From assembly GCF_000158195.2 (NCBI RefSeq), contig NZ_GL987993.1, forward strand, positions 1 through 64,000: a DNA stretch of 64,000 nucleotides. The letters run 5' to 3'. Below, piece after piece: positions 33,089 to 38,582 of the stretch. Source of the stretch: Fusobacterium mortiferum ATCC 9817. Its GTDB lineage: Bacteria; Fusobacteriota; Fusobacteriia; Fusobacteriales; Fusobacteriaceae. Each line of letters starts with the position of its first letter. Position 1 is the first letter of the stretch. The position numbers and the translations under genes were made by a program. A model generated the notes under the pieces. That model had not been told where the DNA came from and did no database searches. It saw nothing but the letters and a program-made list of their open reading frames with translations.

Positions 33089-33463
33089 ATGAATAAGGCA
33101 AGTGTAAGGAGTAAGAAAAAATTAGAGGGAGTAGATAGTAGGTTAGTACTGTTGGTAGGATATGCTTTGGCAATATCTCCAGTGGATTTTTTTGTAAATG
33201 AGGGGGTAAGAAGTGAGAAAAAACAAAAAGAGTACTATAAGCAGGGAAAAAGTAAATGTGATGGGGTAGTAAATAGAAGTAAACATCAAGATGGAAAAGC
33301 AATAGATGTGTATTATGTGGGCTGGGAGAGTGATGATAGTTTAACAGATGGCAGATGGTATATTTTAATAGAGAGCTTTAAAAAGGCTGGAAAGATGTTG
33401 GGATTAAAATTGAGGTTTGGATATGACTGGGGTTGGGACAACCCACATATAGAATTAAGGTAG
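33089..33463 (+). CDS. phage-type M15 peptidase (endolysin)
   Basis: A 124-residue zinc peptidase of the VanY/L-alanyl-D-glutamate endolysin kind. The zinc-site pattern is present: SKHQDGKAIDVYYVG supplies His and Asp, and GWDNPHIELR supplies the second His; NEGVRS resembles the catalytic Arg region. No signal peptide, so a holin would be needed for release. GTAGGAGG precedes the ATG. Small size and neighbours suggest a phage-derived lysis gene. A duplicated 3' end of a related gene lies 60 nt downstream. Confidence 0.88.
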   Translation: MNKASVRSKKKLEGVDSRLVLLVGYALAISPVDFFVNEGVRSEKKQKEYYKQGKSKCDGVVNRSKHQDGKAIDVYYVGWESDDSLTDGRWYILIESFKKAGKMLGLKLRFGYDWGWDNPHIELR

Positions 33464-33527
33464 CACAGAAGATAAACTTCTGTGTCTCAATAATCATAGT
33501 CGTTCTATAAGAACTCCTTGATTATTG
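33464..33527 (+). other. two hairpins downstream of the endolysin gene
   Basis: First hairpin: CACAGAAG / CTTCTGTG with a 5-nt loop, starting at the endolysin stop. Second: CAATAATCA / TGATTATTG with an inner GTTCT / AGAAC helix. No T-run follows either. Confidence 0.6.
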
Positions 33528-33567
33528 GAATTGGGGCTGGGATAATCCTCATATAGAGTTAAGGTAG
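33520..33567 (+). pseudogene. remnant of a second M15 endolysin C-terminus
   Basis: In frame this segment reads DYWNWGWDNPHIELR followed by a stop, nearly the same as the FGYDWGWDNPHIELR end of the intact endolysin. Several codons differ at third positions, so it is a diverged paralogue tail and not a recent copy. The rest of that gene is missing. Confidence 0.8.
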
Positions 33568-33569
33568 CA

Positions 33570-33597
33570 CAAAAAATAAAAAGACCCCGAAGGGTTT
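33570..33597 (-). terminator. terminator of the minus-strand small peptide gene
   Basis: On the minus strand ACCC-TTCG-GGGT forms a short stem with a stable UUCG tetraloop, followed by a T-rich run. It lies just after the 29-residue ORF. Confidence 0.65.
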
Positions 33598-33605
33598 GAG
33601 GAACA

Positions 33606-33695
33606 CTATCTGTTCTTATACCACCACCAAACAATGATAAGTAGAACAATGAAAGTTCCACCTTCAATAGAGTTGATGTTGATTGTGATGTACAT
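33606..33695 (-). CDS. 29-residue hydrophobic peptide, type I toxin-like
   Basis: A short minus-strand ORF in what is otherwise a 441-bp gene gap. It has a perfect AAGGAGG ribosome site 8 nt before the ATG. The peptide has a polar N-terminus, a hydrophobic core of about 13 residues (TFIVLLIIVWWWY) and a basic end (KNR). That layout is typical of membrane-acting type I toxins and of some phage lysis peptides. A terminator with a UUCG loop follows. The 5' leader carries a 15-bp inverted repeat whose 3' arm runs into the ribosome site. I know no named family that matches; the toxin role is inferred. Confidence 0.65.
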   Translation of the reverse strand: MYITININSIEGGTFIVLLIIVWWWYKNR

Positions 33696-33700
33696 ATAGT
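33673..33700 (+). promoter_or_regulatory. possible antisense RNA promoter
   Basis: TTGATG and TATAGT lie 16 bp apart on the + strand, inside the small peptide gene and facing its leader. The RNA would begin near 33707 and so start with the complement of the peptide's ribosome site. Boxes are imperfect. Confidence 0.35.
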
Positions 33701-33709
33701 GTACCTCCT

Positions 33710-33801
33710 TATAAATGGTATTCTACCTTGCTTAAGGGCAGAATAAAAGCCCCAATAAAAATTAGGGCTAATATTCTAAGCTTAATAATACCATTTATAA
33801 G
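33710..33801. repeat. 15-bp inverted repeat in the peptide gene leader
   Basis: CTTATAAATGGTATT (33710-33724) is perfectly complementary to AATACCATTTATAAG (33787-33801). Inside lies another 9-bp helix (AGCCCCAAT / ATTAGGGCT, one G-U). In the minus-strand mRNA the outer stem ends at the AAGGAGG site of the peptide gene and could hide it. Confidence 0.75.
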
Positions 33802-33904
33802 TCCCCAACAGAGTGTCAATCAAAGATTGACTTATGTAGCTCTATTAAGTAATTAGATTATAGCATAAAGTCAATAGAAAGTCAAAAAGGAGAGGAGGGA
33901 GAGA

Positions 33905-35018: not shown

Positions 35019-38000
35019 ATGAAAAGGGAATTAGAAAAGAGTTTAAAAAGATATTTAAAAAGAAAAGTTAGAATAACTTTAGGTTTTGTAACAGCTTTTG
35101 CTATTATGGGGAATGTGGGGCTTGCTTCTGAAGCTATAGAAGGGAGTCTTGACTGGAGTATGGAGAAAGCAAAAGAGTGGACAGAAGGATATGATGGTAG
35201 TAATAAAATAAAAGAAATAACGGGAGATAGAGTTTCAATATCAGAAGCAGGGGAGATAAAGTTAGATGGTATAGTATTAGTAACTGTTCCTCAAACAAAT
35301 ATCTCTAACAAAGTTTTAACTAATATTAATAATACAGCAGATTTATTAGATAAACATATTAATGGAAATACTGAGCTAGTAATAGGAAAAGATGCTGATG
35401 GAAATGAAATTGTTGGGTATAATGAAGGACTAGCTTTACAAAATAACGGAGAAGTAGTAGAACAAGATACAGGTTTTGAAATTTCTGGAGAGGGAAATAT
35501 ATTTGTAAATGATGGAGAGTTAAATAAATCTCAAAAATCACTAGAGGGAGCCACTATAGTTAATAAGGGAGAGATTACTTTTACTGGAGATGGCGGACAA
35601 AGTATAGGAAGTAATGGAGTAGGTTATAATTATGGAATAATAGCTAATGATGGAGTTAGTGGACAATATATATTAGGAACAGGATATAATTATGGAATAA
35701 TAGCCAATAGTGGAAATACAGGACAAAACATAGGAAGTAATGGAATAGGTTATAATTTTGGATTAATACATAATAAAGGAAATTATGGGCAAAATATAGG
35801 AAGTAATGGAGTAGGTTATAATTATGGAGTAATTATAAATACAAATAACAATAGTGCTCAAAGTATAATAGGAACAGGATATAATTATGGAATATTATCT
35901 GGCTTATATGGGCAATTTATATCAAAAGATACAACTACTAATACGTCAGGAATAGGATACAATTATGGAATTATTAATGTTAATACTAATGCTTCTGGTC
36001 AGTATATAGGAAAAGACAAAGGAGGAAAAGTTTATAATTATGGAATAATAAATAATAATGGTGGAACAGCTATTAATATATCTTCAGGAGAAGCGAGCAA
36101 TTATGGAGTAGTAAAAAATACAACAGGAGCAGTATTTAATGGTAAAGTTGATAACTATGGAATAGTTATCTATACTACTGCTAATCAAGGAGCTTTAGGA
36201 ACTGGTACAAATAAAGGAGTGGTTTTAGATAGTACTTACACTCTTGTTAGTGGAAAAAATGATGGTGTAATAGAATTATCATCAACTGGAAATATAAGTG
36301 GAGATAATGATAAAACTTATTATACAAAAGATAATACAATAGATTTTTCTCAAGACTTAACTGGAAATGTTTTAACAGCAGTTATAACTGGAGATGATGT
36401 AGCGTATAATTATAACGGTTCAGATGAATTAGTATTAAATGATAGTGTTGTAACAGGATATTTTACTGATGGTGGAAAGGGAACTTTATTAAATGTTTCA
36501 AATGATTTAGTATTGGTTAATAGTACAATAAATGCTGTAACAGATATTGAAAATAGAGATGATGTAACAGCAGTTAAACTAGATGGAGGAACTTTAACAC
36601 AAATAGGAGAGAGCCAAATAGTAGGAAAAGTTGAAGGAGAGGGAGGTATAAATTATCTAGCTTCTCAAAGTAAAGAGCAATCTATAAGTATAAATGGTGA
36701 AGTAACTCTTAGAAATGCTACTGCAGATGAAGTTATTAATTATGGAATAACTAATAATAAAACTGATATTAGTTTTAAAATTTTAGAAGCAGATAAACTT
36801 ACTTTAGATTTTACTGTTGAAGATAGTGAAAATGTAAATAAAATAGTTTTAGGGGATAATGTAGTGATAGGAGAAGCAACAACTACAACTCCTGTAATAG
36901 ATGGAAGTTCTTCAAGTGAAAAAATAAATTTAACTATCAATGATATTACTGGAATACATGGTGATATAACTCTTGGAAATAATGATGATACTCTAACTAT
37001 TGCTAAAAACTATGCATATGATGGAGTTATAGATTTAGGTAATGGAACTAATGATATTTTAAATTTAAGCCATTCAGATGAAGGAACTACTCATGTAAAA
37101 AATGAAGAAAATACTTTTAACTACAAAGTTCATAATGTAGAGGAAATAAATTTAACTGGTGGACACTGGCATATAGACAATACTAAAACAGAGATTACTG
37201 GAGATAAAGTTAATTTAAATATTTCTGGAGAGTTACACGTAGAAGTAAATAGTCTTGGAGCTGGAAAAGGTGTAGAAACTAGTATGGACGGAGTAGGTAA
37301 AGATGTAAATGATTTTACTGTATCAGCAGGAGAAGGAATAAAATTTGTAGTAGGAGATAATTTTAATGCTTTAGAGCCAAGCTACTCTTTTGAAACTGAA
37401 TATAAACTAGGGGCAGATACTGAAATTAAAGGAGCAGTTATCTTTGATACAAGTGCTTCTACAGTAACTGAAGATTCAGTAGGACATATTAATATTAGAG
37501 TAAAAGAAGCAGATGAATTAGGACTAGGGGATTATGCAGCTATCTATGATACTGTAATTAAAAATCTAAGTGAAAATGATGCACTAAGAAATGCTATAAA
37601 CTATCAAGATGGAGGACAGTTCCAAGATATGATTAAAAATACTGACTTCCAAGCTTCTGCTTTCTATACAACAGGATATGCAGTAACTAAAGATGTAACA
37701 GATATGTATATGGATACAGTAGAAAGCTTTGGTAGAAAAGCTGGAGCTGGAGAATGGTTAGCATTTGGTAAATATTTAAGCTCTGATACAGAGTTTGATG
37801 GTGGTAGTTCATCAAGAGGATATGATGGAGATATTACAGGAACTGTTGGAATGGTAGAGTATGGAGTAAACGATACTACATCTTATGGAGTAGTATTTGG
37901 AAAAGGAGATACTGAGATAGATATTACTGGTGGTGGAAAACTAGATGGAGATAACACATATATTGGTGGTTATGTAAAACATACAACAGAGGGTGGAATA

Positions 38001-38582
38001 GAATTACTAGGAAATATTGGATTTACTAAGAGTGATTTAGATGCTAAGTTCTCTACACATGATACAGTAGGTGGAGTAAATTATAATATTATCTCTGATG
38101 GAAGTTCTGATGCTGATGCAATAACTCTATCATTAAAAGCTAAGAAACCATATAGTATAAGTGAAACTTTAAGAGTAGAGCCAATGTTAGGAGCTAGATA
38201 TACTCTTATCAATCAAGATGCAGTAGAAAGTAGTGATAGAAACTTTAGAATAGATGAGAGAGATGTAACTGTATTAGAAGGAATGGCAGGAGCAGACTTA
38301 GTAAAAGATTTCTCTGTGGCTAATGGAAAACTTTCACTTAAGACAGGAGTAGAGGTATCACTTCTAAGTGTAAGTGATTCTGATGATGCTAGATATACAT
38401 TATATGGAAATGAAATAGCATTAGTAAACGAAGAAGAGATAGCAGATAGTAAAGTTTCAGCTCATGTAGGATTTGGTTATGAGCATGAAAATGGAGTAGG
38501 AGTAGATGCTAGATACAAATTTATCTGGACAGATAAAGGAGATAGTAATAGAGCAGAAGTAGGATTATCATATAGATTCTAA
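35019..38582 (+). CDS. autotransporter (type Va) with repeat-rich passenger
   Basis: A 1187-residue outer-membrane autotransporter. The leader (residues 1-36) is long and basic (MKRELEKSLKRYLKRKV) before a hydrophobic core, as in known fusobacterial autotransporters. The passenger has degenerate repeats from about 190 to 390 built on G-Y-N-Y-G-I-I and then Asn/Asp/Thr-rich beta-helix-like sequence. From about residue 905 (SFGRKAGAGEWLAFGKYL) a beta-barrel domain runs to a terminal SYRF. No protease motif seen; adhesion is a guess. AAGGAGGG precedes the ATG. Upstream lies an inverted-repeat segment that may switch expression. Confidence 0.92.
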   Translation: MKRELEKSLKRYLKRKVRITLGFVTAFAIMGNVGLASEAIEGSLDWSMEKAKEWTEGYDGSNKIKEITGDRVSISEAGEIKLDGIVLVTVPQTNISNKVLTNINNTADLLDKHINGNTELVIGKDADGNEIVGYNEGLALQNNGEVVEQDTGFEISGEGNIFVNDGELNKSQKSLEGATIVNKGEITFTGDGGQSIGSNGVGYNYGIIANDGVSGQYILGTGYNYGIIANSGNTGQNIGSNGIGYNFGLIHNKGNYGQNIGSNGVGYNYGVIINTNNNSAQSIIGTGYNYGILSGLYGQFISKDTTTNTSGIGYNYGIINVNTNASGQYIGKDKGGKVYNYGIINNNGGTAINISSGEASNYGVVKNTTGAVFNGKVDNYGIVIYTTANQGALGTGTNKGVVLDSTYTLVSGKNDGVIELSSTGNISGDNDKTYYTKDNTIDFSQDLTGNVLTAVITGDDVAYNYNGSDELVLNDSVVTGYFTDGGKGTLLNVSNDLVLVNSTINAVTDIENRDDVTAVKLDGGTLTQIGESQIVGKVEGEGGINYLASQSKEQSISINGEVTLRNATADEVINYGITNNKTDISFKILEADKLTLDFTVEDSENVNKIVLGDNVVIGEATTTTPVIDGSSSSEKINLTINDITGIHGDITLGNNDDTLTIAKNYAYDGVIDLGNGTNDILNLSHSDEGTTHVKNEENTFNYKVHNVEEINLTGGHWHIDNTKTEITGDKVNLNISGELHVEVNSLGAGKGVETSMDGVGKDVNDFTVSAGEGIKFVVGDNFNALEPSYSFETEYKLGADTEIKGAVIFDTSASTVTEDSVGHINIRVKEADELGLGDYAAIYDTVIKNLSENDALRNAINYQDGGQFQDMIKNTDFQASAFYTTGYAVTKDVTDMYMDTVESFGRKAGAGEWLAFGKYLSSDTEFDGGSSSRGYDGDITGTVGMVEYGVNDTTSYGVVFGKGDTEIDITGGGKLDGDNTYIGGYVKHTTEGGIELLGNIGFTKSDLDAKFSTHDTVGGVNYNIISDGSSDADAITLSLKAKKPYSISETLRVEPMLGARYTLINQDAVESSDRNFRIDERDVTVLEGMAGADLVKDFSVANGKLSLKTGVEVSLLSVSDSDDARYTLYGNEIALVNEEEIADSKVSAHVGFGYEHENGVGVDARYKFIWTDKGDSNRAEVGLSYRF
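35590..36170 (+). repeat. degenerate tandem repeats in the autotransporter passenger
   Basis: About nine units of roughly 18-25 codons, each centred on GYNYGII or a variant, alternating with GQNIGSNG or GQYI blocks. Two near-identical DNA units (GGAAGTAATGGAGTAGG) recur at about 35608 and 35799. Such repeats favour length change by recombination. Confidence 0.8.

What the first reader, a model, noticed from the sequence alone, without database searches (positions are those of the whole stretch)
33570..33805. Unannotated 29-residue hydrophobic peptide gene with toxin-like architecture
A minus-strand ORF at 33606-33695 has a perfect ribosome site (AAGGAGG, 8 nt spacing), a hydrophobic core ending in three Trp and a Tyr, and a short basic tail. 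A terminator with a UUCG loop follows it. It lies within a 441-bp gene gap of the phage-like island, in the opposite orientation to all neighbours. Type I toxins are small hydrophobic peptides with highly structured leaders and are often island-borne, so this could be a new toxin family. The sequence elements are directly seen; the toxin role is inference.
Basis: partly seen in the sequence, partly recalled or inferred. Interest (0 to 1): 0.78.

Follow-up and report, generated by a model that had tools for sequence, protein, structure and literature searches.

The report
Fusobacterial toxin gene with barcoded self-silencing leader
The 29-residue peptide belongs to a large, unannotated family of small membrane toxins in fusobacteria, each made from an mRNA whose front part carries a unique 'barcode' sequence that probably acts, as a separate small RNA, to silence only its own toxin; this would be a new way to build a toxin-antitoxin pair.

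Summary
About 58 relatives (29-37 aa: short polar N-terminus, DGG/EGG motif, one hydrophobic helix, basic tail) occur in Fusobacteriaceae, on prophage-like islands and on F. varium conjugative plasmids, unannotated in those records. The peptide is under purifying selection (pN/pS about 0.35-0.39).

The most informative part is the leader. Every copy has a strong sense promoter, a 5' hairpin, and a covariation-supported pseudoknot core of one of two types. The core is closed by an 11-20 bp stem that ends at the Shine-Dalgarno site. The stem differs at almost every locus, even between copies with 94-99% identical toxin genes. Its 5' arm almost never contains C (165 G, 7 C). The mRNA 3' end pairs with the ribosome site, as in hok and aapA. 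The same leader also precedes Ldr-like peptides, a known type I toxin family. Leaders without a toxin exist (promoter, hairpin, arm, terminator); toxins without a leader are nearly absent.

Best explanation: a type I-like toxin-antitoxin module whose antitoxin is the prematurely terminated sense leader, with the arm giving locus specificity. Toxicity and the short RNA are inferred, not shown.

The parts
33857..33885 (-). promoter TTGACT-17-(TG)-TATAAT; predicted TSS about 33850
   Evidence: a sense promoter scoring >= 8.5 is present in all 67 aligned modules
33804..33849 (-). 5' hairpin of the leader (longer here than the ACCCGUAUGGGU mini-hairpin of most relatives)
   Evidence: fold; 5' hairpin pairs with the 3' terminator hairpin across the family
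33787..33801 (-). hypervariable 5' arm CTTATAAATGGTATT (proposed antitoxin seed; C-free after its first base)
33740..33776 (-). core hairpin AGAATATTAGCCCTAAT..ATTGGGGCTTTTATTCT with U-tract, proposed attenuator (end of the short RNA)
   Evidence: stand-alone versions end here
33722..33783 (-). type A pseudoknot core (RNA model R1 match); pseudoknot helix 33781-33777 with 33734-33730
33708..33722 (-). hypervariable 3' arm AATACCATTTATAAG (G-free until the SD overlap)
33704..33710 (-). Shine-Dalgarno AAGGAGG; its AAG lies in the stem
33606..33695 (-). toxin-like ORF, 29 aa, MYITININSIEGGTFIVLLIIVWWWYKNR
33598..33609 (-). anti-SD segment AUAGUGUUCCUC, pairs with GAGGUACACUAU (-17.8 kcal/mol)
   Evidence: MFE fold
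33571..33597 (-). terminator AACCCUUCGGGGUCUUUUUAUUUUUU
   Evidence: sequence

Best explanation
The locus is a self-contained toxin-antitoxin module that works like type I systems. The minus-strand promoter makes two RNAs. Most transcripts stop at the U-tract of the core hairpin (about 111 nt: 5' hairpin, single-stranded 5' arm, terminator); this short RNA is the antitoxin. Read-through transcripts carry the 3' arm, Shine-Dalgarno and toxin ORF. When full length they are inert, because the 3' end pairs with the SD and start codon and the 5' hairpin pairs with the terminator. If end-processing removes these locks, the short RNA base-pairs with the G-free 3' arm next to the SD and blocks translation. 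The arm sequence is the specificity code: each locus silences only its own toxin, so closely related modules on co-resident mobile elements stay independently addictive. Shown by comparative sequence evidence: peptide family, conserved leader architecture, pseudoknot, hypervariable C-free stem, SD/3'-end pairing, toxin-less leaders, sharing of the leader with Ldr-like peptides. Inferred: toxicity, termination at the core, trans action of the short RNA, post-segregational killing.
For: Peptide family in Fusobacteriaceae, purifying selection, on prophage-like islands and two co-resident F. varium plasmids, unannotated there. In 55 of 55 modules each 5' arm pairs best with its own 3' arm. Modules with > 85% identical ORFs have arms as different as unrelated ones (0.58 vs 0.55 identity) and swap core A for core B; the window copy and its sister island share a 99% identical ORF but have different leaders. 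5' arms: G 165, C 7 (p 3e-40); 3' arms are G-free in 92%, against 11% of ordinary genes upstream of the SD. Pseudoknot covariation in cores A and B. SD/3'-UTR pairing: own -12.9, permuted -9.7 (sd 0.3), shuffled -5.0 kcal/mol, including GGGGG with CCCC(C) co-changes. Core A U-tract TTTTATTC invariant in 30 of 31 while the opposite side varies. Stand-alone leaders with promoter, hairpin, arm and a stronger U-tract but no 3' half or toxin. Among 58 HMM hits only L084 lacks a recognisable core. Same leader before Ldr-like peptides, Pfam Ldr_toxin E 2e-5 and 7e-5. No conserved antisense promoter.
Against: No transcript or toxicity data. In the full-length RNA the 5' arm is available in cis, so a trans role needs processing or competition that is not shown. 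Core B has a weaker U-tract. The G-to-C swap test did not show that the missing C keeps the arm unpaired. No target was found for the stand-alone seeds among sampled toxins. Some stand-alone leaders may be fresh deletion relics. The Ldr matches lie just below Pfam's cut-off.
Confidence: 0.6

Rival explanations
1. Classical type I system: the antitoxin is a cis-encoded antisense RNA from the plus strand, started inside the toxin ORF (TTGATG-16-TATAGT at 33673-33700) and covering SD and leader.
For: A 9 of 12 promoter-like site at the right place in the window locus and similar TTGATA-17-TACAGT sites in the MTVTI subfamily. Antisense antitoxins are the rule for hok, fst, ldr and aapA (PMC8167048, PMC6733600). 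It would also inherit the arm sequence.
Against: Antisense promoter scores equal shuffled controls on average (8.05 vs 7.93), while sense promoters are strong in every module. No U-rich terminator was seen for an antisense RNA past the leader. Stand-alone sense leaders would have no meaning. In a full antisense RNA the arms would be sequestered in the same stem.
Confidence: 0.25
2. Cis-only control: the leader is a structured attenuator or sensor (ligand, ribosome or RNase responsive) that sets toxin expression, with no trans-acting antitoxin; the stem only needs to pair and drifts.
For: Pseudoknot core with terminator-like hairpin and SD-adjacent stem; the 3'-end lock could be sufficient on its own.
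Against: Drift does not explain complete stem replacement beside 94-99% identical flanks, nor the near absence of C in the 5' arm. Stand-alone leaders also keep mostly C-poor arms with no 3' arm to pair with (15 G, 3 C).
Confidence: 0.1
3. The peptide is not a toxin but a small membrane protein with another role, for example a prophage lysis helper, signalling or stress peptide.
For: In the window it sits next to an endolysin-like gene; toxicity is untested.
Against: Other copies lie on plasmids (conjugation/topB region) and in tandem arrays, copies are repeatedly frameshifted or truncated with leaders intact (L028, L007, L041, G000:C8:600985), and the same leader carries Ldr-like peptides.
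Confidence: 0.1

Closest known systems
[quoted passage not shown]
   Same: Small single-helix hydrophobic peptide with charged tail; Ldr-like peptides stand behind the identical leader module.
   Different: The window peptide has no Pfam or NCBIfam match; Fst and Ldr antitoxins are antisense RNAs (PMC8167048), here no conserved antisense promoter was found.
aapA/IsoA and hok/sok
   Same: SD of the full-length toxin mRNA is sequestered by the mRNA 3' end; multi-copy families (PMC6733600 for aapA).
   Different: No sequence relation of the peptides seen; leader is an inverted repeat around a pseudoknot; antitoxin apparently not antisense.
Type III TA (ToxIN) and AbiF/RCd22
   Same: Gene order promoter - RNA - terminator - toxin on one strand, where termination sets the antitoxin:toxin ratio (PMC12373285); RNA contains a pseudoknot (ToxI, own knowledge).
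   Different: Toxin here is a 29-37 aa membrane peptide, not an RNase or HEPN protein; no tandem RNA repeats; the proposed antitoxin pairs with mRNA.
C. difficile prophage type I TA (CD0977.1/RCd11 and duplicates)
   Same: Prophage-borne small membrane peptides, duplicated on homologous prophages, stabilise the element (PMC7699646).
   Different: Convergent antisense antitoxins; one weak sub-threshold match only, for a peptide behind this leader (L161, NF047374 E 0.037).

Membership tests
Type I toxin-antitoxin system | small hydrophobic toxin peptide (< 60 aa, one helix) | tested here: met
   sequence; HMM family; purifying selection
Type I toxin-antitoxin system | expression of the peptide is toxic | not testable with these tools
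   needs growth assay
Type I toxin-antitoxin system | RNA antitoxin that base-pairs with the toxin mRNA | tested here: inconclusive
   5' arm is complementary to the 3' arm at the SD in all 55 modules, stand-alone leaders exist; no RNA data
Type I toxin-antitoxin system | antitoxin is an antisense (opposite-strand or separate) RNA gene | tested here: inconclusive
   no conserved antisense promoter above shuffled background; window locus has one weak candidate
hok/aapA-type toxin mRNA | 5'-3' long-range pairing that hides the SD | tested here: met
   own -12.9 vs permuted -9.7 vs shuffled -5.0 kcal/mol; covarying GGGGG with CCCC(C) in L182 and L061
Fst/Ldr peptide family | match to NF033608 or PF13940 | tested here: not met
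   window peptide: none; peptides behind the same leader elsewhere: Ldr_toxin E 2.2e-5, 6.9e-5, below the curated cut-off
Type III TA | RNA repeats plus RNase toxin neutralised as an RNA-protein complex | tested here: not met
   no tandem RNA repeats in the leader; toxin is a 29-37 aa peptide
Any Rfam family | match of the leader to a curated RNA family | tested here: not met

The most novel reading that the evidence does not exclude
A toxin-antitoxin architecture not described so far: one promoter, one strand, in which an inverted repeat makes the prematurely terminated leader of the toxin mRNA the antisense antitoxin of that same mRNA, with a rapidly diversifying three-letter (A/G/U) barcode and exchangeable pseudoknot cores giving each module its own immunity group, shared by several unrelated toxin peptides, and with stand-alone leaders acting as toxin-free immunity genes.
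Probability: 0.5. Interest if true: 0.92.

Novelty: new variant of a known kind. Interest (0 to 1): 0.82.

Why it matters
If true, it adds a toxin-antitoxin design in which antitoxin and toxin come from one transcript by attenuation, and specificity is a swappable RNA barcode. It makes directly testable why genomes keep a dozen near-identical type I toxins: barcodes would define incompatibility groups among prophages and plasmids. It also shows an overlooked class of small genes in Fusobacteriaceae, including the F. nucleatum complex and F. varium plasmids, and an RNA module that predicts toxins whatever the peptide sequence is.

Tried and rejected
Antisense-promoter model tested by scoring and positional averaging: no signal above shuffles; kept as a rival because the window locus has a 9 of 12 site. 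Idea that absence of C keeps the 5' arm unpaired in the short RNA: G-to-C swapped arms fold equally open, so the reason for the bias remains open. Search for toxins matching stand-alone seeds: none convincing. Ungapped SD versus 3'-end duplex test showed no covariation; the energy-based version with bulges did. Phage records: no match. The single genome-contig scan matched only one Cetobacterium genome. Rfam, Pfam, NCBIfam, PHROGs: no match for the window peptide or leader. A 57-aa TTG ORF overlapping on the same strand (33494-33667) is a chance frame: no RBS was looked for and no relatives were seen. Mobile-palindrome (MITE) explanation: rejected because promoter, SD, ORF and terminator are conserved as one unit and both arms change together. 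My regular-expression count of toxins lacking a core was faulty; I read the printed leaders by eye instead.

Full report
What was checked. A strong extended -10 promoter lies on the same strand and the region is much more structured than shuffles.

A family, not a single gene. DNA search found about ten related places in the same genome and matches in 17 of 100 relatives. Most of these matches cover the leader rather than the ORF. Downstream of each leader lies a short ORF with a GGAGG site. A peptide HMM finds members in 25 of 98 Fusobacteriota genomes, 12 of them in the window's own genome, and convincingly only in the window's family, Fusobacteriaceae. Named records with members include two co-resident conjugative plasmids of F. 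varium Fv113-g1, F. vincentii, an uncultured Cetobacterium and one viral contig. Nothing is annotated there in the records that carry annotation. pN/pS is 0.34-0.39 and pN < pS in 18 of 21 disjoint pairs. No Pfam, NCBIfam or PHROG family matches the window peptide.

Anatomy of the module. From 5' to 3': promoter; GC-rich 5' hairpin; 5' arm; core; 3' arm; SD; ORF; anti-SD; terminator. The arms form an 11-20 bp near-perfect stem that ends at the SD. The core is of two types, A and B. Each contains a terminator-like hairpin and a second hairpin whose loop pairs back, 5' of the first one (a pseudoknot), with strong covariation. Rfam has no such family. The mRNA 3' end pairs with SD and start codon in essentially all intact modules, and the 5' hairpin with the terminator hairpin, both beyond permutation controls. 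These controls do not fully correct for relatedness. In L182 and L061 the SD has become GGGGG and the 3' end has CCCC or CCCCC. This is the fold-back lock known from hok and aapA (PMC6733600).

The barcode. In 55 of 55 modules each 5' arm pairs best with its own 3' arm. Pairs of modules with > 85% identical ORFs have arms no more alike than unrelated modules, while their promoters and 3' regions stay alike, and core A and core B are exchanged between near-identical toxins. The window island and its sister island in the same genome share promoter, ORF (99%) and terminator but not the leader. The two F. varium plasmids, which share a cell, repeat this pattern (core B on one, core A on the other). 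One pair in the window's genome does share an arm (L008, L010). There the second copy is damaged in the -35, 5' hairpin, core and SD, as expected if equal barcodes make a copy redundant (a single case). The 5' arms contain 165 G but 7 C. Ordinary genes have more G than C upstream of the SD, whereas the 3' arms are G-free in 92%. A helix that only had to pair would not show this strand bias.

Which strand carries the antitoxin. Sense promoters are strong in every module. Antisense promoter scores equal shuffled sequence. The core A hairpin is followed on the sense strand by an invariant U-rich tract whose opposite side varies. The window leader cut at this point folds as 5' hairpin, single-stranded arm, terminator, the usual layout of a trans-acting small RNA. 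Most telling are stand-alone leaders: promoter, 5' hairpin, arm and core hairpin with a longer U-tract, but no second hairpin, 3' arm, SD or ORF (L022, L110, L112, L192, L194, L196). L204 is the leader of a G030 module (L041) whose toxin part is gone in the sister genome. Toxin ORFs are often frameshifted or truncated beside intact leaders (L028, L007, L041, G000:C8:600985). Of 58 HMM hits only L084 lacks a recognisable core (read by eye). A leader can therefore do without a toxin, but a toxin hardly without a leader.

Other passengers. Core models found the same leader before a second peptide group (MFKLEFHFNNNKIEGGT..., which shares the IEGGT motif with the window peptide) and before Ldr-like peptides. 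The latter match Pfam Ldr_toxin at 2.2e-5 and 6.9e-5, slightly under the curated cut-off. A leader that serves a known type I toxin kind is the best available evidence that the window peptide is a toxin.

Judgement. Peptide family real: near certain. Toxin of type I character: about 0.85 (inference). Arms as specificity determinants: about 0.75. Sense terminated leader as antitoxin: about 0.6; cis-antisense RNA about 0.25. Type I TAs on mobile elements stabilise them (PMC7699646), and the promoter-RNA-terminator-toxin order is known for type III and AbiF (PMC12373285), but a type I-like system made this way was not found in the searched literature. That search covers open-licence papers only.

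Noticed in passing
window 33428-33472 and 33533-33575: The 3' end of the endolysin-like ORF (M15 peptidase, phrog_465) is present twice, the second copy just past the toxin terminator; in the sister island (L002) only one copy exists and it runs directly into the module.
   Followed up: partly
window 28.2-39 kb; G000:C8 about 278-281 kb: Prophage-like island (replication initiator, DnaC-like loader, endolysin) beside a tRNA cluster, with a second related copy elsewhere in the genome; a 1187-aa autotransporter-like ORF at 35019-38582 lies in or next to it.
   Followed up: partly
L112, L022, L110, L192, L194, L196: Stand-alone leader RNA genes without toxin in genus g8, some directly upstream of a complete module; candidate orphan antitoxins without identified targets.
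   Followed up: partly
L182, L183, L184, L061, L161: Ldr/Fst-like peptides (e.g. MSFLKELALQVVAGVLASIICKWLDRK) in Fusobacteriaceae behind core A or B leaders; no such type I toxins in fusobacteria turned up in the papers searched.
   Followed up: partly
family-wide 5' arms: Near absence of C in 5' arms (7 C vs 165 G) is unexplained: a G/C swap does not change predicted openness of the terminated leader.
   Followed up: partly
L084 (G033:C102): One family peptide has an SD-adjacent stem (CTGGTGT..ACACCAG) but no core A or B; possibly a minimal leader type.
   Followed up: no
NZ_CP084075.1: A 2.1 Mb record labelled plasmid of F. vincentii SB055 in the plasmid collection is probably the chromosome.
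   Followed up: no
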